IMG/VR virus record: IMGVR_UViG_3300025030_000053
Span: 1-64,000 of that record
DNA length: 64,000 nt
Reading direction: 5' to 3' (one strand)
Source of the DNA: a virus
A model generated the notes under the pieces. The model did not search any database and was not told the DNA's origin. It saw nothing but the letters and a program-made list of their open reading frames with translations. Positions 9,158 to 64,000 of the stretch are shown one piece after another. The position numbers and the translations under genes are program-made. Within the stretch, counting starts at the first letter, position 1. Each line of letters opens with the position of its first letter.

Positions 9158-10150
9158 TCAATCTTTTATTTCAAATTTGGCTACACAATAATCATTGATC
9201 AGAGTCAAAGCAATATATTTGAAAATAACCATTCCATATCTGAGCTGCTTTGGATCATCTGCTTCTAATTCTTGATTGTCTATTTTGATTGTAGCCATTC
9301 CAAGAGATCCAGGTCCTGCGAGTGTATAGCAAGTATTTTTGGGGACCATATAACTTTGATTGATATTTATCTTTCCAGGAATGAAATCTGATGTGTCATT
9401 CACGACTAAATTGTCTTTTTCCAAATCAAAATACTCTTCAGCTCTCTCCCACACCGAAGGATGTATCAAAATGTTATGGCAACTAACTCCGTGAGCTTTC
9501 AATTTGGCAGTTGCACTTTTGTATCCTTTTTTAACATCTTCAATATCAAATGATCCCACAAAATGATCTTTGTGTATCCAAGTAGATTGTTGCGGTATGA
9601 ATGTCTCATCCCCTTTGTCTTTAGAACCTGACAATGATAGATCAGAAATTTGGTTGCCAAGGACTTGTTCCAACAACATAACAATATGCTGGTCTTCATT
9701 TCTGGCAAGGGTTTCTACGGCTTTTTGTCGAACGGATTCTTTTCGTCCAGGGCAATCTTCTACTATTTTCCAAGTAGGATTGGTGGCCAAAGTGAAAAAC
9801 TCTGGTGATATTTCTTCAGCTTGCACAATCATATCTGGAACAGAGCCTCGTTGCGGAATTCTATAGCTCACCACAGAAAACCCTCGTTTATATACTGGTT
9901 TATCATTTAGTCCCACGTAGTCAGGTTTGAATATTTTTCTTGAAAATGGGATGTATTGATCTTCCTCAATCTCAAAATCTATCTCTGATTTGACATCATC
10001 TCGCAGAACTTCTTTGTTCAAAGCCACACGAATCACATCAGACAAAGATATTTCGCAAGAAAATGTTTCTGACATCTCTTGTGCTTTGGTTCTCAAACTT
10101 TCCAAAAGTTCTTCATCTAATCTGACATTGATTTGTTTTGTTTCACCCAT
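9158..10150 (-). CDS. Ribbon-helix-helix DNA-binding domain fused to an HK97-type capsid-like protein
   Basis: 330 aa. Residues 5-47 (KQINVRLDEELLESLR then SLSDVIRVAL) match the ribbon-helix-helix fold of CopG/Arc regulators. Residues 90-330 align with the likely major capsid protein at 15118: SVVSYRIPQRGSVPDM versus AVVSYVIPKRGSVPDM, NPTWKI versus NPTIRL, MVPKNTCYTLAGPG versus MVPKNTVYVLAPGE, and DDPKQLRYGMVIF versus DDPKQLRLGWVIY. It is therefore a diverged capsid paralogue with an added DNA-binding head. It could be a minor capsid protein touching DNA, or a regulator that reuses a capsid fold. GGAGAG precedes the ATG and a TATAAT box lies about 50 bases upstream, so it may be transcribed on its own. 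Confidence 0.85.
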   Translation of the reverse strand: MGETKQINVRLDEELLESLRTKAQEMSETFSCEISLSDVIRVALNKEVLRDDVKSEIDFEIEEDQYIPFSRKIFKPDYVGLNDKPVYKRGFSVVSYRIPQRGSVPDMIVQAEEISPEFFTLATNPTWKIVEDCPGRKESVRQKAVETLARNEDQHIVMLLEQVLGNQISDLSLSGSKDKGDETFIPQQSTWIHKDHFVGSFDIEDVKKGYKSATAKLKAHGVSCHNILIHPSVWERAEEYFDLEKDNLVVNDTSDFIPGKININQSYMVPKNTCYTLAGPGSLGMATIKIDNQELEADDPKQLRYGMVIFKYIALTLINDYCVAKFEIKD

Positions 10151-10199
10151 AATATCTCTCCATTTCGTATAACAATGTAAAGCTTCGCTATACAGATAT

Positions 10200-10205
10200 A
10201 TTATA
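10200..10205 (-). promoter_or_regulatory. Possible -10 box for the RHH-capsid gene
   Basis: TATAAT on the minus strand, 50 bases before the ATG at 10150, overlapping the stop of the methyltransferase gene. Same context (TTGATATAATA) as before the gene starting at 27177. No convincing -35 box. Confidence 0.3.
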
Positions 10206-11331
10206 TCAATTTTTTTGAGAAAACAAACAAGTTCTCATTCTTTTTTTGCACAATTCCAGATTTTGCCTTACCAGAAAGATGACTCCTGGATGTGATCAAC
10301 GGAAATTGCTCAATCAATGTCATTCCCATCTTTTCGCACACAGAAACCATATCCTTTGCCAATTCACGAGAATCAACTTCGTTGACGGCAATCATCCCGA
10401 ATTTTGCATCATCAGCCATCACCTTCAAGCAATTTTCAATTGTCATTTTCCAATATCCATCCAGCCAATCTGAATAATTCCCAAACATCTGAACACTTTG
10501 CGAAGCATCAGAAGAATAGTTTTCAAGATTGAAATAGGGCGGACAAGAGAACACAAAATCGCACACAGGAACGTCAAAGGAGTCAGTTGAGGGTTGCTTC
10601 AGAACCTCACCAGTGCCTCCAAAACAAATCAAGAGGTCATTCAGGCTGTCAGCAGTCAAAGGATCCACGGCAAAATATTCTAGCCCCTCTGACAAGGCTC
10701 CCAGTGCCCTGGCACCCCAGCCGGCAGAATAGTCAAACACCCTTTTAGAAGCATATCTGTGATAGATCCACTTGGCGACTGCGGGTTTGAACTGAGACAC
10801 AGAATAGGACAAACCAGAAGATCTCATTCCTTGAATGAGCATAGGATTTGACATCGCAAACACATATGGTCTCTCGTGCCCATCTTCCTCCATTGAACAC
10901 CACCCCATCCGATTCTGGATGACCCTCATCAATTTGGAGTCATCGTTGAACACGTCAAAACAAGAAAAAGTTTTAGAATCGCCGCGAGCAGCATAGAAAT
11001 ATTGCCCACAGAAATGTTTGACAATATCCGTGGCACATGAATCTGAATTTTTGATGCAATCATTGACAAGCACGACTGATTCGTCCTTCTCTTTCAATTT
11101 TTCGAAGGATTTATGCAATTGTTTGTTGTTCAAAAATGGTAAAGGAAAGCCAGAAGATCGAAAATAATCAAAAACCCATTGAGCCAAATCAACTCTGTCC
11201 TGTCCTGACTTAGACCAGATGTATTCAGCAGTCAATGGATTTCCTGCTGGGTCAACCAAGGAAAATTTTGAATTGGTTTCAATCAAATATGGGTTTGACG
11301 AATTCAGACAATCAAATGGAACATCATTCAT
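10201..11331 (-). CDS. DNA amino-methyltransferase (N6A or N4C type)
   Basis: 376 aa. An N-terminal helical region of about 150 residues is followed by a Rossmann methyltransferase domain: motif I FDYSAGWGA at 199-207, an acidic strand end AVDPLTADSL, and motif IV SCPPYF at 262-267, the SPPY/DPPY class that methylates exocyclic amino groups. The late residues VNEVDSRELAKDM and LITSRSHLSGKAKSG complete the fold. ATGA overlap with the upstream GNAT gene couples translation. Its place in one operon with two GNAT-like genes suggests a joint role in DNA modification, but that is inference. Base specificity cannot be read by eye. Confidence 0.8.
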   Translation of the reverse strand: MNDVPFDCLNSSNPYLIETNSKFSLVDPAGNPLTAEYIWSKSGQDRVDLAQWVFDYFRSSGFPLPFLNNKQLHKSFEKLKEKDESVVLVNDCIKNSDSCATDIVKHFCGQYFYAARGDSKTFSCFDVFNDDSKLMRVIQNRMGWCSMEEDGHERPYVFAMSNPMLIQGMRSSGLSYSVSQFKPAVAKWIYHRYASKRVFDYSAGWGARALGALSEGLEYFAVDPLTADSLNDLLICFGGTGEVLKQPSTDSFDVPVCDFVFSCPPYFNLENYSSDASQSVQMFGNYSDWLDGYWKMTIENCLKVMADDAKFGMIAVNEVDSRELAKDMVSVCEKMGMTLIEQFPLITSRSHLSGKAKSGIVQKKNENLFVFSKKLI

Positions 11332-12080
11332 CTTTTTTCACTTCCAAAAAACACTTTTTTCTCCAAAAAAACTGGAAATTTTTTCTTGTATTTCAAAACA
11401 CCCCCAGAGGAAGCCCCCCAGTTGATCAGAAAAGGTTTCTGAATTTCTTTGAAAATTCTTTCAAAGGTATTGAAATCAATGAACAGGCACAGATTCCTCA
11501 ACGACACATCATTCTTCCGAATGACATATCTGAAACATCCATCGTCAGAAATTTTCGACACCACAGAATACCCCACCAACCTGCCATTCAGATAGAAGAA
11601 ATTTGACCACAAATCTTGTTTTTCAAATTCCCAGAATTTGCGGAAAAAATTGCGATCATATCCAGAATGACGCTGCCAGCCATATTTATCGCCAGACTGA
11701 TCATCCCACATATCGATCAATGACGAAACTTCGCCAAAAGAGATCGGATTGTCTTGGATGTCAATTTGTTGGTTGAAATGATTCCTGGTTTCTCTAATCT
11801 CAGAAAATTCCTTTCCTGACAAATTGAAAAATTCTTCATCAAATTCAGATAAAACAAGAATTGATGAATATGTCGAACATCTTTTGTCAAGATTTTCTTT
11901 GGACGGCAAATATCCCCAAGAAATTCTGTTAGACAATGGGAAATCTGACAAACTCACGGAATCATCGAACACAACAACTTGTTTGGAATTTTTCCAAAAA
12001 CCAGCCCAATCATCGAATGGTTTGGCGGTTTTTGACATCATTCCTTGAATTGTGTGGCGATTGATATAATCGTCAACCAT
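11328..12080 (-). CDS. GNAT-fold protein, copy A of a tandem pair
   Basis: 250 aa. The C-terminal half looks like a GNAT acyltransferase: FYLNGRLVGYSVVSKI matches the strand-turn-strand before the acyl-CoA site, followed by a helix LRNLCLFIDFNTFERI and a final strand INWGASSGG. The N-terminal half (DDWAGFWKNSKQ) aligns with copy B but has diverged. A 107-bp core is almost identical to copy B. GNAT proteins acetylate amines; in phages one branch (Mom-like) modifies DNA bases. Substrate unknown. Start overlaps the upstream stop by 8 nt. Confidence 0.65.
   Translation of the reverse strand: MVDDYINRHTIQGMMSKTAKPFDDWAGFWKNSKQVVVFDDSVSLSDFPLSNRISWGYLPSKENLDKRCSTYSSILVLSEFDEEFFNLSGKEFSEIRETRNHFNQQIDIQDNPISFGEVSSLIDMWDDQSGDKYGWQRHSGYDRNFFRKFWEFEKQDLWSNFFYLNGRLVGYSVVSKISDDGCFRYVIRKNDVSLRNLCLFIDFNTFERIFKEIQKPFLINWGASSGGVLKYKKKFPVFLEKKVFFGSEKR
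11551..11657. repeat. 107-bp near-identical direct repeat, copy A
   Basis: Matches 12308-12414 at 105 of 107 positions, while flanking parts of the two genes differ at many bases. It encodes the shared core from DRNFFRKFWE to VVSKI of the twin GNAT genes. This pattern suggests gene conversion. Confidence 0.9.
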
Positions 12081-12816
12081 TTAGTTTTTCCTTTATGATG
12101 CACAGATATACCTCTTCAACAGATTTCACCGGGAATTTGTTCTTGTATTCCAACAATTTCTTTCCGGAAGTTCCCCAATCAATCAAAAACGGCAGTTGAA
12201 TTTCATTGAAAATTCTTTCAAAGGTCTTGAAATCCAAAAACAAAGAAAGATCTTTCAAGGAGATGTCATTTTTGCCCATCAAATAGTTGTAGCAGTTGTC
12301 CTGTCCGATTTTCGACACCACAGAATACCCCACCAACCTGCCATTCAGATAGAAGAAATTGGACCACAAATCTTGTTTTTCAGATTCCCAGAATTTGCGG
12401 AAAAAATTGCGATCTCGACCGGAGCGAATCGACTGCCAGGCAAAAGTCTCAGAACGTTGTTCATCCCATATGTCAATCAAGGACATCACGTCATTCAATG
12501 AATCAAATTCATCTCGGATTTCCACTGATGAATATCTGTTCAGTGCAGCTCGGAATTTTCTCCATCTGTGCCCCGAAAGACTCAGGAACTCAGAGTCAAT
12601 CTCTGCGATTGATTTGAAAAGTTTGTATTTTGTTGAAACACCAGGAATGAGAGATGGGTCTTTGACATCGCGGATCTGAATTTGTTGAGCAGAAATTTTC
12701 GTTGGCTGCCAAACGACAAGAGTTTTTTTCTTAGAATTTGTCCAAAAACCAGACCAATCATCGAGGGGAATGCAATTTTTCGACATCAGTGATTGAATTT
12801 CGTGCCTGGGAACCAT
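12073..12816 (-). CDS. GNAT-fold protein, copy B of a tandem pair
   Basis: 247 aa, same architecture as copy A: an N-terminal DDWSGFWTNSKKK block, a helical middle (SLIDIWDEQRSE), the conserved DRNFFRKFWESEKQDLW helix and the GNAT-like FYLNGRLVGYSVVSKI hairpin. The C-terminus (LIDWGTSGKKLLEYKNKFP) parallels copy A (LINWGASSGGVLKYKKKFP). The start ATG follows the upstream stop directly (TAAATG) with GGAG upstream. Both copies have full-length open frames, so both are probably functional and may have different substrates or form a heterodimer. Confidence 0.65.
   Translation of the reverse strand: MVPRHEIQSLMSKNCIPLDDWSGFWTNSKKKTLVVWQPTKISAQQIQIRDVKDPSLIPGVSTKYKLFKSIAEIDSEFLSLSGHRWRKFRAALNRYSSVEIRDEFDSLNDVMSLIDIWDEQRSETFAWQSIRSGRDRNFFRKFWESEKQDLWSNFFYLNGRLVGYSVVSKIGQDNCYNYLMGKNDISLKDLSLFLDFKTFERIFNEIQLPFLIDWGTSGKKLLEYKNKFPVKSVEEVYLCIIKEKLNG
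12308..12414. repeat. 107-bp near-identical direct repeat, copy B
   Basis: Partner of 11551-11657; two mismatches, both single-base. Confidence 0.9.
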
Positions 12817-13980
12817 TTATTTCTCCATGTCGAACTTGTAGTACATCACCGGCGGCAATTGTTGCCAGGGAATCTGTTCTAGCAATGTGCGATATTCTGC
12901 TGCTCCGAACCAGAGCCAAAAATATTCAGAATCGTCAGAATTGTCAATCCTGGCGTCAACACCGAATTTGTCTTTGAAAAATTGAGACATCATCTTGTGA
13001 TCCTGCTCATCAAAATTGTGAGTGCAAAGTGTCAAACCAGTTCCATGACGACTTCCATCATCAGCAATCCAAATTGCGACGGACAATGGAGTGATCTTGT
13101 CCAGCCACCATTGAGAGATTACTCGCTTCTTGGAAGAAATATAGATCTTGTCGTAGATTTCCTTCCACAAGGAATGGTACGGCAAGTCGAATTTATAGAC
13201 TCGTTGAGAGATTTCTTCATCTGTCAACGAGGCTGCCATTTTCACGGAAACATGATGTCCTGACTGATCAGAAAGGTAAGTTTTTGGATGCCATCTGAGC
13301 ATTTTTTGGGATTTCCAAAAAGCATATTCTCGCTGCTTTGGACCATGCGATTCTCGAAAACAGAAATTGTTGTCTTTTTGTTTGCAGATGCAGCCATCGC
13401 CGAGCAAAGATCCAAAAATGACAGACTCCTCTTCTGGCGTGAGATCGTTTGGAAGATGTCGACGAAAAACATCCGATCTGCGTCGTTTTGTGATGACCAA
13501 TTCTTTGAGTTTGTCCCTTACGGAAAGATAGGTTTTCCCAGGAATTGATTGATTTATTTGTTTGACAGGAACCAATTCTGAATATTTTTCCAAAAGAATT
13601 TTTTCTTCATCAGGTGTCCATTGAATATTCTCCTCTATTTCTTCAAAAGATTGCTTTGTTCTGCATTGTTTGCAAAGACCATTCGAAGAATGTGGGATTT
13701 TAGATGTTCCACACTGAACGCAACAATCATGTTCTCTTGACCACATTCCTGATGGCAATTGGCTGTTGCTTCCCTTTTTTCCGCGCTTTGAATCTCCGCT
13801 TGCTTTGGCTATTTTTGCGACTCTGGGATCGGATTTGTCCTTTCCTTTCATCCAGGCTTCTCTCAATGGGTCATCTGGAAATTGCTTTTTGAATTCCCCA
13901 ACGGACAATTTGTGTGTTTGACGGACATGGGACAAAATCGATTTCTCAAAATCATTCTGGCAGATTGGACATTTCAGCAT
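12817..13980 (-). CDS. LAGLIDADG homing endonuclease with N-terminal zinc fingers
   Basis: 387 aa. It starts with a C2H2 finger (C4, C7, H18, H23: CPICQNDFEKSILSHVRQTH), the layout of MucR-like fingers. A second Cys cluster follows (DCCVQCG...GLCKQC), then a Myb/SANT-like helix block (WTPDEEKILLEKYSEL). The nuclease part has two LAGLIDADG motifs, IFGSLLGDGCI and VAIWIADDGSR, each with its catalytic acid. It is a freestanding mobile endonuclease with its own DNA-binding modules. The ATG comes just after the stop of the next LAGLIDADG gene. No intron or intein boundaries were found around it. Confidence 0.85.
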   Translation of the reverse strand: MLKCPICQNDFEKSILSHVRQTHKLSVGEFKKQFPDDPLREAWMKGKDKSDPRVAKIAKASGDSKRGKKGSNSQLPSGMWSREHDCCVQCGTSKIPHSSNGLCKQCRTKQSFEEIEENIQWTPDEEKILLEKYSELVPVKQINQSIPGKTYLSVRDKLKELVITKRRRSDVFRRHLPNDLTPEEESVIFGSLLGDGCICKQKDNNFCFRESHGPKQREYAFWKSQKMLRWHPKTYLSDQSGHHVSVKMAASLTDEEISQRVYKFDLPYHSLWKEIYDKIYISSKKRVISQWWLDKITPLSVAIWIADDGSRHGTGLTLCTHNFDEQDHKMMSQFFKDKFGVDARIDNSDDSEYFWLWFGAAEYRTLLEQIPWQQLPPVMYYKFDMEK

Positions 13981-13981
13981 T

Positions 13982-14977
13982 TTAGTTTCCTTTCAAATAG
14001 TGATCTATTTTCTTCTTTTTTCGAGTCAAAAAGATTGTTGCATTGGCATACATCTTTGGAATAATCTTTGACATTTGGTTATTTCCATTGTATCTCATCC
14101 TAAAAATAGTTTTGTCTTTGTTTCTTGGAGATATTTTGGTTCGATTGACATTGCATTCAGATATCAAAAATTCTTGACAACCAGACAGGACATCCATAGT
14201 TCCTGTGATATCAAGCGAATGGCAACCACCTTCAGAATCTTGAGAATAGAATCCGCCATCTCCATCATTCAATCCCCTTACCAAGTGCCATTGCAATTCT
14301 GTGTTTTCCAAATCAACCCATTTGGCAATAAAAGTTTTTCTAGGAACAATGTCATACTTTGCAAGATCTGAACAAAGTTTGTTGTTTCTGATTTCAAGTG
14401 AGCAATGACTGGGTTTGTCATTGATTTTGTGGTCAGAATCCAAACATTGCAGCAATTTGACAAGAATTTCACGATCCTGGTTGTGAATCGTGATTCTCAA
14501 TTTTTTGGCAGCCGTTCCATAATCTCCGATGGATCCATCGGCAAGGATGAAACCAAGAAAATAAGCCTTTGCTTCTGAATCTATCGTTTCAAAAAAGTTT
14601 TCATTGCAATGGTGTTTTTTGTGGGATTCGCTATTCGTTCGAAATGGAATGTTATTTTGTTTAAGTATTTTTCTGATTGGAATTGTTGAAGTGCCAAATT
14701 TATTTGCTATCTGAATCAAAGTCATTCCAGATTGGTAGTCTAAAATCACCCGTTGTTCATCTTCGTTTGACTGAATTTTTCTCAAATGTACCACTCCAAT
14801 TCTCGTTGCGTCAGATTTGTTCCTTCCTGGAATTTTGTTCAGCAACAAAATCTTGTCAATTCCTCCGGCTGTGAAATTGAATTGCGTGGCAAGTTCAAAA
14901 CAGGTTGTTTCTGTGTTTTGATAGTCATCGCAAATTTTCTGTTCATCTGCTTCTGAAATTTTCTTTTGAAAAGGCAT
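13982..14977 (-). CDS. LAGLIDADG homing endonuclease with helix-turn-helix modules
   Basis: 331 aa from the ATG at 14977 (GGAG 8 nt upstream); an earlier TTG at 15010 lacks a good site. Two helix-turn-helix units resemble resolvase-type HTH (ADEQKICDDYQNTETTCFEL and DEQRVILDYQSGMTLIQIA, each followed by an N-x-I-P segment). The endonuclease part has AYFLGFILADGSI and LVRGLNDGDGGF, two LAGLIDADG helices with acidic residues. It differs in type from its neighbour, so two unrelated homing enzymes sit side by side between the capsid paralogues. Confidence 0.85.
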   Translation of the reverse strand: MPFQKKISEADEQKICDDYQNTETTCFELATQFNFTAGGIDKILLLNKIPGRNKSDATRIGVVHLRKIQSNEDEQRVILDYQSGMTLIQIANKFGTSTIPIRKILKQNNIPFRTNSESHKKHHCNENFFETIDSEAKAYFLGFILADGSIGDYGTAAKKLRITIHNQDREILVKLLQCLDSDHKINDKPSHCSLEIRNNKLCSDLAKYDIVPRKTFIAKWVDLENTELQWHLVRGLNDGDGGFYSQDSEGGCHSLDITGTMDVLSGCQEFLISECNVNRTKISPRNKDKTIFRMRYNGNNQMSKIIPKMYANATIFLTRKKKKIDHYLKGN

Positions 14978-15051
14978 CGAAATTTCTCCTTCGTGAAAGA
15001 GATTACTCAATTTTCAAGCTGTTTTCAATGACTTTCAAGAGATTGCAAAAG

Positions 15052-15117: not shown

Positions 15118-15978
15118 TTAGTTGTTCACGATTCTGATTTGCGCGGTTGCGTAATCGTTTATGACGGCTATTCCGAGCTCTTCGTAGATAACCCACCCAA
15201 GTCTTAGTTGTTTAGGATCATCTGATGGCAGAACTGTGATGTCCTGTCTGATAGGCATTGCACCTACAAATTCTCCCGGAGCCAACACATAGACTGTGTT
15301 CTTTGGAACCATCGTGGAAACATGTATGTCCGCGGTCCATAGGTGGCCGTAGAGACCTGACATGATGACGTCTCGTTGAGTTGCCTCATCGAAAAAGTCT
15401 TTGCCCCAAGCTCTCACGTCCTTGTATCGGAATGGATGGCAAACAACTTTTGCGCCAACCAATTCATGCTCTTCAATCAAGGCTAGTGCCAAGTTGATGT
15501 GATCAGGAGCAAGATTTCCAGCTACGGTGACAGTATGAGCGGCAGGGATGCCAGCTTGAAGAATTCGGAATACTTCCCGATCTTCCTGTCTTTGTAGAGA
15601 ATCTTTTGCTCTGATTTGAGCACGATCCACAATATAGAATCTTCGTGCGCGAATTTCTTGCAGTCTGATTGTTGGGTTACAAGCAAGTTCCCAAGTAGGA
15701 ACAAGCAGTTCTTCAGCTTCGACGAGCATGTCAGGCACGGATCCACGTTTTGGAATTACGTAAGACACGACAGCAACGTCTCTTTCGTATCTTGGAAGAG
15801 CGCCTTGGGGAAGTTCGTCAACCATCAAAAGTTTTCTACCAATTGCTTGGTATTCCAACGCAATTTTGATTGGTTCTACCATGGCCTGGGCAAGAGACAC
15901 GCGACCTTCTGGCGTATCTAGTGCTTGAGCGATGATTTCTTCTTTTTGCTCATTCACATTTCGTTTGATTAGACTCAT
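15118..15978 (-). CDS. Probable major capsid protein (HK97-type)
   Basis: 286 aa. I call it by position (after decoration and scaffold genes, portal-protease-capsid order), its own strong ribosome binding site (AGGAGGACTATAATG), a terminator right after it, and sequence character. The N-terminus is a charged helix (VNEQKEEIIAQAL), then EYQAIGRKLLMVDELPQGA, the usual start of the folded core in this group. The core block AVVSYVIPKRGSVPDM and the C-terminal DDPKQLRLGWVIYEELGIAVIND recur in the RHH-fused paralogue at 9158. Codons and GC content look higher than in nearby AT-rich genes, as expected for a highly expressed protein. Cleavage by the prohead protease is likely but the site is not known. 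Confidence 0.75.
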   Translation of the reverse strand: MSLIKRNVNEQKEEIIAQALDTPEGRVSLAQAMVEPIKIALEYQAIGRKLLMVDELPQGALPRYERDVAVVSYVIPKRGSVPDMLVEAEELLVPTWELACNPTIRLQEIRARRFYIVDRAQIRAKDSLQRQEDREVFRILQAGIPAAHTVTVAGNLAPDHINLALALIEEHELVGAKVVCHPFRYKDVRAWGKDFFDEATQRDVIMSGLYGHLWTADIHVSTMVPKNTVYVLAPGEFVGAMPIRQDITVLPSDDPKQLRLGWVIYEELGIAVINDYATAQIRIVNN

Positions 15979-16001: not shown

Positions 16002-16667
16002 TTAGCTCAACAGATTTTCACTCAAACCAGTAAGTCTGACGTGAAGGAATCCAGTAGTTACGGCTGGATCAATGATTCTTGCTACGACTGGACCATCAGT
16101 CCCGACAGCGTCGACAAAAACGAATTTACCGGCGTTGGTGAGGCTGTTAGCAGTTGCACCGAAAGTCAAAGGACTATCGATCGCAAATGTTGGAGCCACT
16201 GCTTGATCTTGAACGGCTGTATCAGTTGTTGAATCTGATGCATATTGATCTGTCTTCAGTCTGCTTTGTCCGCTGACCACTGCGATAGGTCTGCGAGCGG
16301 CTCTGGTAGAACCAGCAGTCCAATTTTGAACGACTGACCCAAGAGACTCATCATACAGATCTCTCAATGCTCTTTTTGGTCTAGCATAGGCTTCTGGTCC
16401 ACTAAAATCAGAGACGCTCAGCCCGGTTGTTGAATCATGTGAATAGTTGCCAGGGTTAACTGGATCAACTACTGCCATAGTATTTCCTGAAGTTGCAGTA
16501 TCATCATAGGCTACGCCCAAGAATCTAACCGTTGTATCAGCTCTATCCGATGGAACTACCACAGGACTTCCAGAACTATCATCAAGGCTCACCGCCATGC
16601 CGGAATAGATGCTGTCTGCACCTTCATAGTTGTCAATTAGAACATGTTGCAGTACGAATACTCCCAT
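16002..16667 (-). CDS. Probable head decoration/stabilisation protein
   Basis: 221 aa, rich in Ser, Thr, Val, Asp and Gly with few charged helices, so beta-rich. Directly upstream of the capsid gene in the same transcript, with AGGAGG before the ATG. The N-terminal layout (AVSLDDSSGSPVVVPSD then RFLGVAYDDTATSGNTMAV) resembles DUF2190-like decoration proteins, where small beta-barrels sit on the capsid. The assignment is by context and composition. Confidence 0.55.
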   Translation of the reverse strand: MGVFVLQHVLIDNYEGADSIYSGMAVSLDDSSGSPVVVPSDRADTTVRFLGVAYDDTATSGNTMAVVDPVNPGNYSHDSTTGLSVSDFSGPEAYARPKRALRDLYDESLGSVVQNWTAGSTRAARRPIAVVSGQSRLKTDQYASDSTTDTAVQDQAVAPTFAIDSPLTFGATANSLTNAGKFVFVDAVGTDGPVVARIIDPAVTTGFLHVRLTGLSENLLS

Positions 16668-23919: not shown

Positions 23920-26900
23920 CTATTCTGATTGATTTTTACCTTGGTGTCTTTCCATTGCAGTTCTTGTGATCACCTTCATCACCTGATCTATCTTTTCTTT
24001 CACCTCATCTTCCGTGAATCTCAAAACTATCCATCCCATTGACCAAAGGGTTTGGTCCTTTTTCTTGTCTCTCTCAACCTGCTCAATAGACTGATGCCAA
24101 GTTTTCCCATCCACCTCGATGGCTATCTTGAGGCCAGGGAAAGCAAGATCAACCGAAAGATTATTTTGAGAGTAGGGGTAATATTGTGCAACAGAGGCAA
24201 ATGGGAGTTGCCCTGATTGATTTGCTTTCATGATTGCTTCAAACAATGCCATTTCTGCTTTGTTGAACCATTTGTGATAAGCATTGTCCTGTTTTTTATT
24301 GTCTTTACCGGCAAATCTTGCCATTTGGAAAATATCTCTCCCCACAGACACAAATGGCTGCCAGTCTGGATCAAAATCAATCATTTCCAAGTCATCTGGA
24401 ATTTCTCTGATAGATTCCTCTAATGACAAATCAGAACCAGCAACAAATTTCTTTGCCTGCGATACGGCCTCTCTGTGCATTCGAATACGATCCAAAACAG
24501 AAGCAACAGGAGGAGGTGCCCCACCAGGAACGCCCATGTCCATGGCCCCTGGCATACCTGGTGCTGGTGCCGGAGCACCTTCCCCCATAGCACCTGGCAT
24601 CTCTGTCGGCATTGCTCCGCCGACCATTGGTGGCATCCCTCCTCCTGCGCCTATCTCTCCCCCTTCTTGTACTCCCAAACCTAAATCTGGAGATGTCAGC
24701 ATATTGCCCATTTCTTCTTGCTTCAGCAATTCTACTTCAGTATCATAGTCAATGTCGAACTTGGAAAGGAGTGTCTGCAAAGAAATCTCATTCCTTTGTC
24801 GCAATTGAAGAAGATTTGCAATTTCTTGATTGTTTTCTTTCAGTCCAAGGTCATTGAAAACAATTTCTGGATAGATAATTTCTTCAATACCCTTGGGGCT
24901 GACAGATGTAAAATTATTCCATTCAGATACTGGCTTGAATATCTTTTGCTCAATCCAATGTTTGAGTTGATTTCTAAAAGTGTTCAATCTTGCAGCGAGG
25001 GCATCCAACCCTACCTGAGCAGAAGCATAATTCGGTCCTTCACCATGAACCAGCGCTTTGTTCATCTGAAAACCGGAGAGGATGTCTTCATTGATCATTT
25101 CATATTCATCTGTCAGCATCAACACTTTTCCAGCGCTGCCTTCGAATGAATTTCCTTGAATTGTTATTTTCCCATTTCTTCTGGTAACGAAAAATCCTGT
25201 TTCTGTCTCAAAACACCAAACAAAATCATTTCTTTCCACATAATTTTTATGTTCAGATTTAACTTTGGGATATTTACCCCTATTAGATTGCTCAGACCAA
25301 CTTACTCTATATTGTTGATTACCACATTCATTAGTAAATTCTGATATAAGCGGTGCATAACCTAATTTAAAAACTATTTCTTGTACATCATTGGCTAATT
25401 GTTTGGATACTGTATGATATATTCTATATCTAACTTTATATCCTTGATTATCAATTTGAGTTCTTCCATCTCCCTTCATCATAGATTCTAAAATAGTTTT
25501 TAATTTATTTTTTGGTAAATTTTTAATCCAAGATGGTATATTTTTCTCAAAACACCCAGATCCAAAATTATTTTTAAAATATATTGCTAATTTTTTATTT
25601 AGAATATCCCATGAAACTACTTTTTTATTTTCATATTCATATTTGTGATATTTAATTCCAAATTTTAACATCATATTATTAATTTCAGAATAATATTGTG
25701 AATATTTACTTTGACTAATACTAACACGATATTGTCTTGTTTCTTTTTTATATGTAGTATATCCCTCTGATAAATACCATCCTACATATTCCAAATATTT
25801 ATTTATTTCTATTTCTAAATTATCATATATACATACTGAGTCAATATCATTTCCTGGTGATTCCTTCCATTCAGACACCGCCCTGAAATGGTCCCCCGAT
25901 TTAACATTGTCAGCTATGTCAGTATGCCATTCTCCAGAACATCCTTTTTTAATTAACATCTTATGATGTTTGGTGACACATACATCCATTTTAGATGATT
26001 TAAAATTTATCATCTCTCTGTTCTTTGCTTCAAATTTAAATCTATTTTTAAAATTAGAATAATACATTTTTTCTGTATCAGTGTCAAAAATCATTATTTT
26101 TTCAAAATCTGAAACATCATCGTAAAATTTCCATCCATTTTCAGTTAAAACTTCTGTGTCAGAAGAATAGCAAAGATCAAAAGCATGATGCACAACCAAA
26201 GTCAACAACGGATCATTGGCCACTTGAGACAACTGCTCTTGCACTGCTGCCAGATCATCTTCGCTCGCTGGTCTCTGATCTGATCCTACTTTGACAATTT
26301 TGATTGGCAAAATATGTCTGTCAACAACCATCCATTGTGCCTGCCGAAGTTTGTCTCGGTAAGCCAGTGTTGGAAAAAGCCTACGAATCAAAGATGTCCC
26401 ATATGTTTCATAAGGACTTGCTGCGAATTTGAGATGTGTGGCAGCAATAGGATTTAATTTGATTTTTTGTTTAGTTTTGATTCGTTCGCGAATTTCAGGA
26501 GGAATTTGGTTATATATTTCTTCTGGCTTGCCTTTGATGCAAACATCAACCAGTTGATCATTCGGAATCCACTCAATAACAGGATCCTGAGTGCCAAGTG
26601 CTTGAGCAGAAACTTCAATGGTATTTGGGTCAAAAATTGACAACCCTCCCCAAGTAGCACCCTCATGCTCACACGGGCGACCATTATCTGGAATGTTGCC
26701 TGTTCCATGACATGTTGGGCAATCCATTTCAAGCAAAACGAAACAATCTCCATAGGCATAATATTCGTAGGCTATTTGTGGAAGCCATTTGTCTAATTGA
26801 ATTTTTTCTCTGCAAAGTTTTTCAAAATATTCTTTTACTGCTCCATTGGGACATTCTAACTTGTATCCATTCATAGAAAATGAAGAATAAAAATCTAACC

Positions 26901-27177
26901 CAGTAGCCACCAGGGCTTCATTTCGAAGCCAGTATTTTGACCATGCATACACTTCTTTGCGATTGGTTGGAATTTGCCAAGCAGATGCAGTATGCTGCGG
27001 GGCATAGAATCCTGGAGGAGTAGTTGTAATGTTGTACGAATTAGATGTTGACTGGGCAGAAACTTCTAACCCAAAAACAGGTCTCCTGGAGGCTACTACA
27101 TTGGGATTAGCGTATTGAGATTTTTGTGGAGGACCAGAATATTTGACAACTCTGGTATTGGTTTTGTTTTCAGTCAT
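23920..27177 (-). CDS. Portal protein with an intein and a C-terminal Vsr/DUF559-like nuclease domain
   Basis: 1085 aa; 744 after splicing. The N-terminal extein (1-335) has portal features: SAWQIPTNRKEVYAWSKYW, LDFYSSFSMNGY, a four-ligand zinc insertion (C153, C156, C169, H171) and SPYETYGTSLIRRLFP. An intein occupies 336-676. The second extein part carries FEGSAGKVLMLTDEYEM and the usual portal end, a Pro/Gly/Met linker (about 840-890), then residues 974-1070 with VDLAFPGLKIAIEVDGKTWH and MGWIVLRFTEDEV. That tail matches the DUF559/Vsr branch of PD-(D/E)XK nucleases (Asp1010, Glu1021, Asp1023, Lys1025). Fusion of a nuclease to a portal is unexpected. AAGGA precedes the ATG. It sits upstream of the protease gene, the usual head order. 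Confidence 0.8.
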   Translation of the reverse strand: MTENKTNTRVVKYSGPPQKSQYANPNVVASRRPVFGLEVSAQSTSNSYNITTTPPGFYAPQHTASAWQIPTNRKEVYAWSKYWLRNEALVATGLDFYSSFSMNGYKLECPNGAVKEYFEKLCREKIQLDKWLPQIAYEYYAYGDCFVLLEMDCPTCHGTGNIPDNGRPCEHEGATWGGLSIFDPNTIEVSAQALGTQDPVIEWIPNDQLVDVCIKGKPEEIYNQIPPEIRERIKTKQKIKLNPIAATHLKFAASPYETYGTSLIRRLFPTLAYRDKLRQAQWMVVDRHILPIKIVKVGSDQRPASEDDLAAVQEQLSQVANDPLLTLVVHHAFDLCYSSDTEVLTENGWKFYDDVSDFEKIMIFDTDTEKMYYSNFKNRFKFEAKNREMINFKSSKMDVCVTKHHKMLIKKGCSGEWHTDIADNVKSGDHFRAVSEWKESPGNDIDSVCIYDNLEIEINKYLEYVGWYLSEGYTTYKKETRQYRVSISQSKYSQYYSEINNMMLKFGIKYHKYEYENKKVVSWDILNKKLAIYFKNNFGSGCFEKNIPSWIKNLPKNKLKTILESMMKGDGRTQIDNQGYKVRYRIYHTVSKQLANDVQEIVFKLGYAPLISEFTNECGNQQYRVSWSEQSNRGKYPKVKSEHKNYVERNDFVWCFETETGFFVTRRNGKITIQGNSFEGSAGKVLMLTDEYEMINEDILSGFQMNKALVHGEGPNYASAQVGLDALAARLNTFRNQLKHWIEQKIFKPVSEWNNFTSVSPKGIEEIIYPEIVFNDLGLKENNQEIANLLQLRQRNEISLQTLLSKFDIDYDTEVELLKQEEMGNMLTSPDLGLGVQEGGEIGAGGGMPPMVGGAMPTEMPGAMGEGAPAPAPGMPGAMDMGVPGGAPPPVASVLDRIRMHREAVSQAKKFVAGSDLSLEESIREIPDDLEMIDFDPDWQPFVSVGRDIFQMARFAGKDNKKQDNAYHKWFNKAEMALFEAIMKANQSGQLPFASVAQYYPYSQNNLSVDLAFPGLKIAIEVDGKTWHQSIEQVERDKKKDQTLWSMGWIVLRFTEDEVKEKIDQVMKVITRTAMERHQGKNQSE
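25150..26172 (-). other. Intein in the portal gene with LAGLIDADG endonuclease
   Basis: 341 residues, from Cys336 (CYSSDTEVLTENGWK, block A) to Asn676 (GKITIQGN, block G), followed by extein Ser677. Block B is CVTKHHKML. The two endonuclease helices are YVGWYLSEGY and ILESMMKGDG. The penultimate residue is Gly rather than His. The intein DNA is clearly more AT-rich than the exteins, which points to a separate origin. Confidence 0.88.
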
Positions 27178-59783: not shown

Positions 59784-62700
59784 TTATTGACCACACGACC
59801 CACTTGAAAAATTACATCGCTTGCATCTCAAAACACAACTTTTCTCTTTGACCATATCGAGGCTTCCGCAGGCAGGACACTGCTCTAATGAAGGTTTTTC
59901 TTTAGACGAAATTCTTATAATTTCATTTGAAACAGAAAAATCTACTGATTCTATTTCTTCTGCATATATTTTTTTAACCTGTTCTATTTTCTCAACAGAA
60001 GATACTTCAACAGCATTGACGTCATTGTCGTATTCATAGGATCCAATTTTTCCTATCACATCATAGATTGATTTAGCTATTTTTACGTTCGGATGCAACA
60101 CCTGCCCGCTTGGATCTTGGGCTATAGATCTCAACATAGAGAAATATTCCTCTTGGGGGACTCCGTGTTGCAATCCAATTGACACAGAACGCCCCAGTGC
60201 TCCTAGCGCAGTCCTTGTTGCTGCATCTTCTTCGGCATAATCAATGAATATTTCACCAAGAGTCCCATCTTCATATTCGCCCGTTCTCAAGAATATTTTA
60301 TGATACGGGCCACCAAAAGGACCAATTTGAAATTCATGTGTCTGTCCGAACCTCTTGTTCGGAAGTTTCCTTCGCTGAGCAACAAAGATATTTTTCTCTT
60401 CAACTTCAATTGACTGATTCAAATCGGTCAAAAATTCTACTGACTTGGAGAGTGTATTCAATGGTTGTGAAAGTTTACAACCATCGCGATAGAGTGCCAC
60501 ACATTTAACACCCAAATCGTGTGCCAGCCAATAACAATTTTCTACATCTTCAATAGTCGCATCTTCGAAGAGATTAATTGTTTTGCTTGATGCCCCACTT
60601 AGAAAAGATTGAGCAGCAGCCAATGCTTTGATGTGAGCATTATGATGAATATATCTGTTCCCATTTCCTGCTGGGACAGCACAATCAAACACTGGATAAT
60701 GCTCTTCTTTCACATGCGGTGCCCCTTCAATTGTTTGGTTGCCACAAATATAAATATTAGCTTGTTCTACTTCTTTATCTGTAAATCCCATCGATTTCAA
60801 TATTTGTTTTCCTATATCCATAGAATATAATTGTTCTTCTGGAATCCCAATCTCGATGCAATATTCTCGCCCGAGGGTGTGAGTGTTAAACGATTGGGAA
60901 ATATGAGAGAGTGATGGCAAAGAATCTTCAATATTTGCTAATTGTTCTTCGGACATAAGCTCCAATAAACTTTCCTCATCTAATCCGAAGTCTGGTAATT
61001 GTCCATGTCCTACAATATATTTTTCAATATCATCTATTTGCTCTGAAGTGTATCCAAGTTTTAGCAGTGCTTTAGACACCATTCTATTGACTATCTTGAT
61101 ATATCCTCCACCGGCCAATTTTTTGTGTTTCACTAGCGAAAAATCTGGTTCTATGCCGGTTGTATCACATGACATCAAAAGACCAATGGTGCCACAAGGG
61201 GCCAAAAGTGTCGTCTGGGCATTTCTAAAACCATATTTTTCACCTTCAGAAAGTACTTTGTCCCATACTTTTTGCGCATAGTTTAAAAGATATTCAGGAC
61301 AAAAATTAGGATCAATACCCATCGGTGGGACATTCAACATCTCATATTCATCTATCTTAGAATTATATGTTGCTCGTCTATGATTTCTAATAATTCTAAT
61401 CATGTGTTCTTGATTAGCTTCATATCGGTTGAATGGTATTTTTTCTTTTGCCATTTCTATTGAAGTCATATAAGATTCTCCTGTCAAAATAGCAGTCAAT
61501 ACGCCGATCCAAGCCCTAGACCTGTCAGAATCATATGGAATTCCTTGAAGCATCATCAAAGCTCCAATATCAGTATATCCCAATCCAAGTGTTCGGTAAT
61601 CCTCTACGCCTTTGGCGATAGCTGGTGTTGGAAGCAAAGCAGATTCTATTGTCATCTCTAATACAGAAGTCATCAAATGAACTACATGTCTGAATTGTTT
61701 AAGATCAAATTTGCCATTCTTTTCATCAAAGAATTTAGTTAGCCTGATAGACGCCAAATTGCACGCCGAAGAATCGAGCCATACAAATTCCGAGCATTGC
61801 GAAATTAAAATACCATTTGCATATACCAAATTATTTATAGGTTCTGTAAGATTATATGTATCTTCTTTACCACTATACTCAATTGATTGAATTACTATTT
61901 GATTATTAAAATTTCTTAATTTATATTTATTATTTTCTTTAATTATAATTGTTTTTTTATTAAAACAATCTATAATTTTTTGTGCTAATCTACATTCTTT
62001 TTCATCATCGAAATCTATTATTTCATATTCATTATTTAAATTAAAATATTTAGAATCCAATTGTATATTATTTTGTAAATTATCTATTAATTTAGATTTA
62101 TTATCTTTAATTGATATATCACTAAATAATGAAATAGGCATCCCTATTTTTAGATTTTTAGTTTGAATTTTTTCTCCATTAATATACCAATTATGATTTT
62201 CTGTACATTTAATTTCTCTACCATCAGAAAGAGTAATTTTATAAACATCATTCACTCCCGTGTACATATACGCCACTGGTCGACTAACAACGCCACCTTT
62301 GGTATATACCTCAGTCATAATTCCTAAATAAGACTTTTTTACTAACTCCTCAATTGTAATTAAACCATCTGGTGTAGCAATGCGTGTATCACCAGTAAAG
62401 CATGGATTGGTTGCGTGTATTTCACCATCATTCAAACAAGTATTCCAAGAGTTCATCGTATCTTTGTAATGAACTCCCGGATCAGCGCTCAACCATGCAG
62501 AGTAGCACAGCTTGTTCCACAACAAATTAGCGTCAATTGTTTTATAAATTTTTCCATCTGTTCTATTAGTCAGATTCCATTCTGAATTCTTTTTTACAGA
62601 ATTTAGAAAATTATCTGTTATGCAGATAGAATTATTAGAATTTTGTCCAGATATTGTATGATATGCCTCATCATTGAAATCATTAGTTAATTGAATAAAT

Positions 62701-64000
62701 TCCATTTTATTTTTACCTTGTTTGGCTATGTCTATGGCTCTTTTTATATAATTTATTTCAATATTATGAGATAATGCAAGGTTTATTAGATTTTTAATTT
62801 TTTTATGTTTATAAGAAGCATTTTTGCCCAATTCTTGCCAACATCTAATTATTTCGTTCAGAATTTGATCATTAGATTTAGACCCGGACAGCATTGACGC
62901 CACTTTCTGTTCCTCATTCACTTTCCAATCGATGAATTCTTCAATTTCTGGATGATCAATGTCCAAACTTACCATCTTCGCAGATCTTCTCGTATTAAAT
63001 ACAGCTATGCCAGATCCAGATATCTCAGAGGTAGACCAGATTACGAAATTATGCCCACTTTGTGGACTTTTGTCATCTGGCGTTTCGCACTCAACCTCAA
63101 TATCATATACCGGCATAATTCCTATATTTTCTACAGAAATTACTTTATGATTATTTTTATATACTTCTTTGACAAAATTATTATAATTTCCAAAATTATT
63201 ATTTATTTTCTCTTTTAATTGTTTAATAGATCCTATTCTTCCAATAACTATTTTTCGTCCATAAACATATTCTTCAAATTCATTAATAGAATATCCACTA
63301 TTTATTATTTTATATGCAAGATTCATCATTTTAAACTTTATAGATTCTTTTTGCATATCCGTGGATCTACAGGAAGATATTAAAATTTTAGATTGTTTTT
63401 CTTTAAATTTATGAACTCTATTAGTATCTTTCCAAAATTTTGAAGATTTATGCATTCCATTATTTTCACCACTATGGTCAAATTTAATCATTTGAAATGT
63501 ATGTTTACCCTCTTTAGATAAGCCCAATCCGTGCAATCGTGCATGCTGAGATTGTGTCATAATTTCAAAATTAGACGGATGATTATTGTATATGTTGCCA
63601 TCTTTATGGTGAATAATTTTTCCATCAAGTTCAATACCCATAAGATCTCTGGCAACCATTCGGTGCCAATCTTCTTTACCAGAAAATCCATCTCTTCTTT
63701 CTATCCTAGCATATCCATCTTTGCGTTTGTTCATATGGCAAGCAAATAAAGAATTTCCAGGAATCAAATTACCAGCTAATACCATTTTCCCATCAGACAA
63801 TTTTACCGGATGATCAAATGATAATTCGAATTGACCTTTATCTGTAATAATTCTGACTACTTCTTTTTCTCCCGAGTACCATGCTTCAGCCCATTTGGCC
63901 TTATATCGTTTTGCTGGAGGATCATAACTAATGACAACAAATTTATTTTTTTGATCAGATAATGTTTTAATCGGAATTGGACCTTTTTCAGTATAAACCA
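59784..64000 (-). CDS. nrdJ: Class II (adenosylcobalamin-dependent) ribonucleotide reductase with two inteins, 5' end off the window
   Basis: Frame open from the right edge; the visible part is about 1405 residues. Exteins show NrdJ features: RRSAKMVSLDIDHPEIEEF, a Cys site rebuilt by splicing (HATNP joined to CSEFVWLDSSACNLASIRL), TTLLAPCGTIGLLMSCDTTG then EPDFSL, SSKTINLFEDATIEDV, KCVALYRDGCKLSQPL, and a C-terminal four-Cys tail (CPACG...LRCKRC) seen in class II enzymes. It makes dNTPs from ribonucleotides without oxygen dependence. Inteins lie at 62994-64000 (partial) and 61797-62402. The TTG at 63800 is not the start; the frame runs further upstream. Confidence 0.9.
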   Translation of the reverse strand, partial: VYTEKGPIPIKTLSDQKNKFVVISYDPPAKRYKAKWAEAWYSGEKEVVRIITDKGQFELSFDHPVKLSDGKMVLAGNLIPGNSLFACHMNKRKDGYARIERRDGFSGKEDWHRMVARDLMGIELDGKIIHHKDGNIYNNHPSNFEIMTQSQHARLHGLGLSKEGKHTFQMIKFDHSGENNGMHKSSKFWKDTNRVHKFKEKQSKILISSCRSTDMQKESIKFKMMNLAYKIINSGYSINEFEEYVYGRKIVIGRIGSIKQLKEKINNNFGNYNNFVKEVYKNNHKVISVENIGIMPVYDIEVECETPDDKSPQSGHNFVIWSTSEISGSGIAVFNTRRSAKMVSLDIDHPEIEEFIDWKVNEEQKVASMLSGSKSNDQILNEIIRCWQELGKNASYKHKKIKNLINLALSHNIEINYIKRAIDIAKQGKNKMEFIQLTNDFNDEAYHTISGQNSNNSICITDNFLNSVKKNSEWNLTNRTDGKIYKTIDANLLWNKLCYSAWLSADPGVHYKDTMNSWNTCLNDGEIHATNPCFTGDTRIATPDGLITIEELVKKSYLGIMTEVYTKGGVVSRPVAYMYTGVNDVYKITLSDGREIKCTENHNWYINGEKIQTKNLKIGMPISLFSDISIKDNKSKLIDNLQNNIQLDSKYFNLNNEYEIIDFDDEKECRLAQKIIDCFNKKTIIIKENNKYKLRNFNNQIVIQSIEYSGKEDTYNLTEPINNLVYANGILISQCSEFVWLDSSACNLASIRLTKFFDEKNGKFDLKQFRHVVHLMTSVLEMTIESALLPTPAIAKGVEDYRTLGLGYTDIGALMMLQGIPYDSDRSRAWIGVLTAILTGESYMTSIEMAKEKIPFNRYEANQEHMIRIIRNHRRATYNSKIDEYEMLNVPPMGIDPNFCPEYLLNYAQKVWDKVLSEGEKYGFRNAQTTLLAPCGTIGLLMSCDTTGIEPDFSLVKHKKLAGGGYIKIVNRMVSKALLKLGYTSEQIDDIEKYIVGHGQLPDFGLDEESLLELMSEEQLANIEDSLPSLSHISQSFNTHTLGREYCIEIGIPEEQLYSMDIGKQILKSMGFTDKEVEQANIYICGNQTIEGAPHVKEEHYPVFDCAVPAGNGNRYIHHNAHIKALAAAQSFLSGASSKTINLFEDATIEDVENCYWLAHDLGVKCVALYRDGCKLSQPLNTLSKSVEFLTDLNQSIEVEEKNIFVAQRRKLPNKRFGQTHEFQIGPFGGPYHKIFLRTGEYEDGTLGEIFIDYAEEDAATRTALGALGRSVSIGLQHGVPQEEYFSMLRSIAQDPSGQVLHPNVKIAKSIYDVIGKIGSYEYDNDVNAVEVSSVEKIEQVKKIYAEEIESVDFSVSNEIIRISSKEKPSLEQCPACGSLDMVKEKSCVLRCKRCNFSSGSCGQ
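61797..62402 (-). other. Mini-intein in nrdJ ending in Gln
   Basis: 202 residues, from Cys467 of the visible frame from 63800 (CFTGDTRIATPDGLITIEEL, block A) to Gln668 (NLVYANGILISQ), followed by extein Cys. Block B is IKCTENHNWYI. No LAGLIDADG or HNH motif, so it is a mini-intein without a homing nuclease. Gln in place of the usual terminal Asn is rare but known in some RNR inteins. More AT-rich than the exteins. Confidence 0.85.
62994..64000 (-). other. Intein in nrdJ with HNH endonuclease (N-terminus off the window)
   Basis: The frame at the right edge begins VYTEKGPIPIKTLSDQKNK, the normal first strand of an intein, so only a few residues are missing. Block B is LSFDHPVKL. An HNH core follows (WHRMVARDLMG...IIHHKDGNIYNNHPSNFEI). 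It ends GSGIAVFN before extein Thr-Arg-Arg. Block F is SGHNFVIWS. Confidence 0.85.

What the first reader, a model, noticed from the sequence alone, without database searches (positions are those of the whole stretch)
9158..10150. Ribbon-helix-helix DNA-binding domain fused to a capsid-protein paralogue
Seen: residues 5-47 match the RHH fold, and residues 90-330 align along their whole length with the likely major capsid protein (for example SVVSYRIPQRGSVPDM and DDPKQLR). Joining a sequence-specific DNA-binding domain to a capsid shell fold is not something I know from described phages. It may be a minor capsid protein that holds DNA at one vertex, or a capsid-derived regulator.
Basis: partly seen in the sequence, partly recalled or inferred. 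Interest (0 to 1): 0.85.

Follow-up and report, generated by a model that had tools for sequence, protein, structure and literature searches.

The report
DNA-binding domain fused to capsid paralogue
In two distantly related phage-G-like viruses, a second, altered copy of the main shell protein has swapped its N-terminal arm for a small DNA-gripping domain, so a building block of the virus shell seems to have become a DNA-binding protein whose job (genetic switch or DNA tether) can now be tested.

Summary
Window 9158-10150 (minus strand) encodes 330 aa, P0001. Residues 65-328 are homologous to the major capsid protein (MCP) at 15118-15978 (29% identity, E 2e-30) and to the solved phage G capsid protein gp27 (6wkk, E 8e-14); the predicted fold matches HK97-fold capsids. 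The first ~50 residues pass the Pfam RHH_1 cut-off as an isolated domain and carry Arc's DNA-reading triad (Q-x-N-x-R). A syntenic orthologue (P0003, 317 aa) in a deeply diverged phage-G-like record has the same architecture and triad, so the fusion is old and retained. The 47 other phage-G-like records searched, including phage G, lack it. Both fusions lose the MCP N-arm and capsomere-centre loop. The orthologue is its own transcription unit, with seven 12-bp direct repeats between a TATAAT box and the start codon, the kind of array RHH proteins bind; in the window the comparable signal is only suggestive. I favour a capsid-derived, DNA-binding (auto)regulator that uses the capsid fold to multimerise or bind MCP (about 0.48). 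A minor capsid subunit with an inward-facing DNA-binding domain is the main rival (0.3). DNA binding, virion location and function are untested. I found no described precedent for an RHH-capsid fusion.

The parts
9158..10150 (-). RHH-capsid fusion gene, 330 aa (P0001)
10001..10141 (-). Ribbon-helix-helix domain (residues 4-50): predicted helices 13-30 and 36-49, expected beta strand at residues 5-11
   Evidence: Pfam RHH_1 21.6 bits, above cut-off 20.5 for the isolated domain; helices predicted at low confidence; match to P22 Arc 0/500 shuffles
10121..10135 (-). QINVR (residues 6-10): same Q-x-N-x-R as Arc Gln9/Asn11/Arg13, the DNA-contacting strand
   Evidence: Arc contacts from PMC12645479
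9161..9958 (-). HK97-fold capsid domain (residues 65-330), paralogous to the MCP; N-arm and A-loop GLxGH motif lost
10151..10205 (-). Leader: TATAAT (10205-10200), TGTATAG (10194-10188), GTTATAC (10173-10167), SD GGAGAG (10161-10156); possible operator, unproven
15118..15978 (-). Major capsid protein, 286 aa (P0002), phage G gp27 family (phrog_2522)
16002..16667 (-). Gene just upstream of the MCP, 221 aa; candidate head decoration protein by position only (45% identical, syntenic in G001)
   Evidence: function is inference
12817..13980 (-). LAGLIDADG endonuclease gene between MCP and RHH-capsid gene; 36% identical counterpart in the same place in G001

Best explanation
Shown by sequence: a duplicated phage-G-type major capsid gene whose product lost the N-arm and capsomere-centre loop and carries an Arc/CopG-type ribbon-helix-helix domain in place of the N-arm. 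The fusion is retained in two syntenic, deeply diverged genomes. Inferred mechanism: the RHH domains dimerise and bind short direct repeats next to the gene's own promoter, which at least in the orthologue is a stand-alone transcription unit. The HK97-fold part no longer builds ordinary capsomeres but is kept as a self-association or MCP-binding module. The protein is therefore a capsid-derived DNA-binding (auto)regulator, possibly one whose activity depends on free capsid protein, which would couple gene expression to head assembly. The steps 'binds DNA', 'represses' and 'contacts MCP' are not shown.
For: Paralogy and fold. RHH domain and Arc triad in both orthologues. Synteny of the two genomes, 57 orthologous pairs with median 36% identity. 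No start codon with a plausible ribosome site between the domains, so the product is a fusion. In L004/G001 an 18-bp-stem terminator lies upstream and a GC-rich stem lies downstream. Seven 12-bp direct repeats, TRF score 145/115 against a maximum of 88 in 40 shuffles of the 183-kb record, are the strongest non-coding array of the record and sit between TATAAT and the ATG. RHH proteins of the ParR type bind 10-20-bp direct repeats next to promoters (PMC9426499). N-arm and A-loop positions conserved in MCPs are lost.
Against: The array is seen in one genome only. The window leader scores in the top 0.3% of windows with the heptamer core but not with the full 12-bp unit, and the leader-leader similarity is not significant (p about 0.18). 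No DNA binding has been tested. Retention of the HK97 fold and nearness to the MCP gene also fit a structural role. A repeat array could serve another protein.
Confidence: 0.48

Rival explanations
1. Minor capsid protein: the paralogue co-assembles into the MCP shell (for example at vertices, like T4 gp24 or SaPI Ccm) and its N-terminal RHH domain hangs inside, gripping the packaged or incoming genome.
For: HK97 fold retained. MCP paralogues at about 20% identity do form vertices (gp24, PMC9958956), and a CP homologue, Ccm, enters the shell with its N-arm pointing inwards (PMC8569155). N-terminal fusions to HK97-fold encapsulins end up inside the shell (PMC8346489). The gene lies near the head genes on the same strand.
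Against: The N-arm and the near-invariant A-loop motif are lost, and in P0003 the A-loop is deleted. The MCP is 86% conserved between the two genomes while this protein is about 26% identical, so tight shell packing is unlikely. Phage G and 46 other records do without it. An obligate RHH dimer fits a pentamer poorly. The orthologue is a separate transcription unit.
Confidence: 0.3
2. Assembly modulator or interference factor: the degenerate capsid subunit poisons or redirects capsid assembly of competing phages or satellites, and the RHH domain only autoregulates it.
For: Ccm precedent; independent unit with RHH plus array, the layout of antitoxin-type regulation.
Against: No direct evidence; no linked satellite genes seen; the capsid part is still fold-competent.
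Confidence: 0.12
3. Partition-like or genome-organising adaptor: RHH binds a centromere-like array and the capsid fold polymerises, marking the genome for packaging or segregation.
For: Array form and spacing resemble parC bound by RHH ParR (PMC9426499); the neighbouring RHH-Hsp20 protein of L004 hits ParG weakly.
Against: Array in one genome only; no partition ATPase or filament gene was looked for systematically.
Confidence: 0.05
4. Decaying duplicate or chance N-terminal resemblance; no function.
For: RHH scores are modest in the full-length proteins; the capsid part diverges fast.
Against: Intact ORFs, the same domain order, the same triad and synteny in two genomes with median 36% protein identity.
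Confidence: 0.05

Closest known systems
Bacillus phage G gp27 major capsid protein (PDB 6wkk; PHROG 2522)
   Same: Homologous HK97-fold capsid domain
   Different: Phage G has one copy only and no RHH domain
P22 Arc / CopG-type ribbon-helix-helix repressors (Pfam RHH_1, RHH_3)
   Same: Domain pattern and the Q-x-N-x-R DNA-reading strand
   Different: Here the domain is fused to a capsid protein; DNA binding untested
T4 gp24 vertex protein
   Same: Diverged paralogue of the MCP with the HK97 fold (PMC9958956)
   Different: gp24 has no DNA-binding domain (own knowledge) and is essential at vertices; this gene is absent from most relatives
SaPIbov5 Ccm
   Same: Capsid-protein homologue with altered N-arm (PMC8569155)
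   Different: Ccm is satellite-encoded, has a cleaved delta domain and builds pentamers; no RHH domain is described
Fusion encapsulins (Flp-fused Family 1; cNMP-domain Family 2B)
   Same: An extra functional domain fused to an HK97 shell protein (PMC8346489)
   Different: Enzyme or ligand-binding domains of cellular compartments, not a DNA-binding domain on a phage capsid paralogue
ParR/parC
   Same: RHH protein next to an array of short direct repeats (PMC9426499)
   Different: ParR has no capsid fold and works with the ParM filament

Membership tests
Ribbon-helix-helix (RHH_1/CopG) DNA-binding domain | Profile match above the curated cut-off | tested here: met
   Isolated P0001 N-terminus 21.6 bits against 20.5; the full-length protein is below. 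The orthologue's N-terminus is just below the RHH_3 cut-off
Ribbon-helix-helix (RHH_1/CopG) DNA-binding domain | Strand-helix-helix order | tested here: inconclusive
   Helices 13-30 and 36-49 predicted, strand region not resolved in the monomer, pLDDT 40-70
Ribbon-helix-helix (RHH_1/CopG) DNA-binding domain | Dimerisation and DNA binding | not testable with these tools
   Only the contact triad Q-x-N-x-R is seen
HK97-fold phage-G-type capsid protein | Sequence homology to the gp27 family | tested here: met
   E 8e-14 to 6wkk, E 2e-30 to the window MCP
HK97-fold phage-G-type capsid protein | HK97 fold | tested here: met
   Foldseek E 1.7e-9 to HK97 prohead, 6.7e-23 to gp27; the model is MCP-guided and of medium confidence
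HK97-fold phage-G-type capsid protein | Conserved N-arm and A-loop used for shell building | tested here: not met
   N-arm 5 of 18 and A-loop 1 of 8 near-invariant MCP positions kept in P0001; 3 and 0 in P0003
T4 gp24-type vertex protein | Present in the virion at the pentamers | not testable with these tools
   No virion data
T4 gp24-type vertex protein | Present throughout the phage group that uses it | tested here: not met
   2 of 49 phage-G-like records have it; many records are partial, but the 497.5-kb phage G record is held whole
ParR-like array-binding RHH protein | Direct-repeat array next to the gene | tested here: inconclusive
   Clear in L004, not clear in the window

The most novel reading that the evidence does not exclude
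A phage has turned a duplicate of its major capsid protein into a DNA-binding switch or tether: an RHH head reads an iteron-like operator while the capsid fold senses or joins the growing shell, directly linking head assembly to transcription or to the genome.
Probability: 0.3. Interest if true: 0.88.

Novelty: new variant of a known kind. Interest (0 to 1): 0.68.

Why it matters
Capsid proteins of tailed phages are regarded as structural only. A conserved fusion of a sequence-reading DNA-binding domain to a capsid paralogue suggests that the HK97 fold can be recruited as a regulatory or genome-tethering module. It gives a directly testable case: one gel shift and one virion mass-spectrometry run would separate the two main readings.

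Tried and rejected
More relatives: degenerate-pattern scans of viral and bacterial genome collections with P0001, P0003, P0001+P0003, P0001+MCP and two DNA patterns found only L004 again, plus plain MCP relatives and chance matches; tblastn in phages and plasmids found none. Leader-leader similarity between the two genomes (TATAAT...TGTATAG): not significant, p 0.18. G001 operator matrix on G000: the heptamer core puts the window leader at 122 of 42,284 windows, the 12-bp unit fails; reported as suggestive only. sigma-70 scan: no hit in the window leader, no excess over shuffles. Tree: the two RHH-capsids group together (100/99), but their branches are saturated (length 10), so the timing of duplication is unsure. 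PDB sequence search with the isolated RHH sequences gave no RHH hit. RHH-Hsp20 relatives: none. Chance fusion and pseudogene: disfavoured by the syntenic orthologue.

Full report
What is there. The ORF at 9158-10150 reads on the minus strand and encodes 330 aa. The window is part of a 105,766-base virus record. The MCP is at 15118-15978 on the same strand. It belongs to the phage G gp27 family (PHROG 2522, E 3e-66; 52% identical to phage G).

Capsid part. P0001 residues 65-328 align with the MCP (29% identity, E 2e-30) and with solved phage G gp27, 6wkk (E 8e-14). An AlphaFold model (mean pLDDT 63, built on an alignment of mostly MCPs, so partly guided by them) matches HK97 proheads, encapsulins and phage G gp27. 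P0003, the orthologue, also matches HK97-fold capsids.

RHH part. The first ~50 residues score below Pfam cut-offs in the full protein but above the RHH_1 cut-off as a separate domain (21.6 bits, E 2e-4). They are the only RHH_1 match in the record at E<=1. They align with P22 Arc better than all 500 shuffles, including Q-x-N-x-R, Arc's base-contacting Gln9/Asn11/Arg13 (PMC12645479; the Arc sequence was checked against the PDB). There is no start codon with a convincing ribosome site in the linker, so the product is a real fusion.

Conservation. Record G001 (locus L004, 183 kb) is collinear with the window's record: 57 orthologous ORF pairs, median identity 36%, MCP 86%. In the same place, after the MCP and a LAGLIDADG endonuclease gene, it carries P0003 (317 aa): RHH N-terminus (best RHH_3 hit of that record; QYNFR) plus a diverged capsid part (26% identical in the alignment). 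47 other phage-G-like records, including phage G's own 497.5-kb genome, contain only the MCP. Many of those records are fragments. The fusion is therefore restricted, but old enough to persist through deep divergence.

What was lost. Among positions identical in at least 20 of 21 MCPs, P0001 keeps 5/18 in the N-arm and 1/8 in the A-loop at the capsomere centre; P0003 keeps 3/18 and 0/8 (the region borders were set by me from the HK97 layout). The RHH domain stands where the N-arm was. P0003's A-loop is deleted and its E-loop has an insertion.

Regulatory surroundings. In L004 the gene is a separate unit: an 18-bp-stem terminator precedes it, a GC-rich stem follows. Between a TATAAT box and the ATG lie seven 12-bp direct repeats with the core GTTATAG. 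This is the strongest non-coding tandem array of the 183-kb record. Its score, 145, exceeds the maximum of 88 in 40 dinucleotide-preserving shuffles. RHH proteins of the ParR type bind direct repeats of 10-20 bp beside promoters (PMC9426499). In the window the 50-bp leader has TATAAT, TGTATAG and GTTATAC. It ranks 122nd of 42,284 windows for the heptamer core, but fails with the 12-bp unit, and the leader similarity is not significant. An operator in the window is a hypothesis.

Mechanism. I commit to a capsid-derived DNA-binding (auto)regulator that uses the HK97 fold to self-associate or bind MCP. Shown: fusion, folds by prediction, conservation, array in the orthologue. Inferred: DNA binding, autoregulation, MCP contact. 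The main rival is a minor capsid subunit with an inward-facing RHH. Precedents for paralogous or fused HK97 proteins entering shells are gp24 (PMC9958956), Ccm (PMC8569155) and Flp-fusion encapsulins (PMC8346489). Against it stand the lost shell-building elements, the sporadic distribution, and the contrast between a near-frozen MCP (86%) and a fast-changing paralogue (26%).

Novelty. Text searches found no described RHH-capsid fusion, within an open-access library only. Each half is a known kind; the combination is new to my knowledge.

Noticed in passing
L004:13204-13800 (minus): The next gene after the RHH-capsid orthologue encodes an Hsp20 small heat-shock protein with its own RHH-like N-terminus (weak ParG/RHH_9 hits; RHH part resembles that of P0003, 0/500 shuffles). 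No relative found in viral contigs.
   Followed up: partly
L004:12078-12159: Non-coding array of seven 12-bp direct repeats (36-bp higher-order repeat) in front of the RHH-capsid gene; unique in that record.
   Followed up: yes
15118-15978: The MCP is 86% identical between two genomes whose other proteins have a median of 36% identity: strikingly frozen for a capsid protein.
   Followed up: partly
10201-12816: Two tandem paralogous genes with weak similarity to phosphatidylglycerol lysyltransferase C-terminal (FemAB/GNAT-like) domains, beside a possible DNA methyltransferase (10201-11331, no Pfam hit), lie between the endonuclease gene and the RHH-capsid gene.
   Followed up: no
23920-27177: Portal protein gene apparently interrupted by an intein-like insert and ending in a nuclease-like domain (phrog_503).
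   Followed up: no
59784-63800: Ribonucleotide-reductase-like protein with intein/homing-endonuclease-like segments (read from the translation only).
   Followed up: no
12817-15010: Two LAGLIDADG endonuclease genes directly behind the MCP gene; one is conserved in place in G001.
   Followed up: partly
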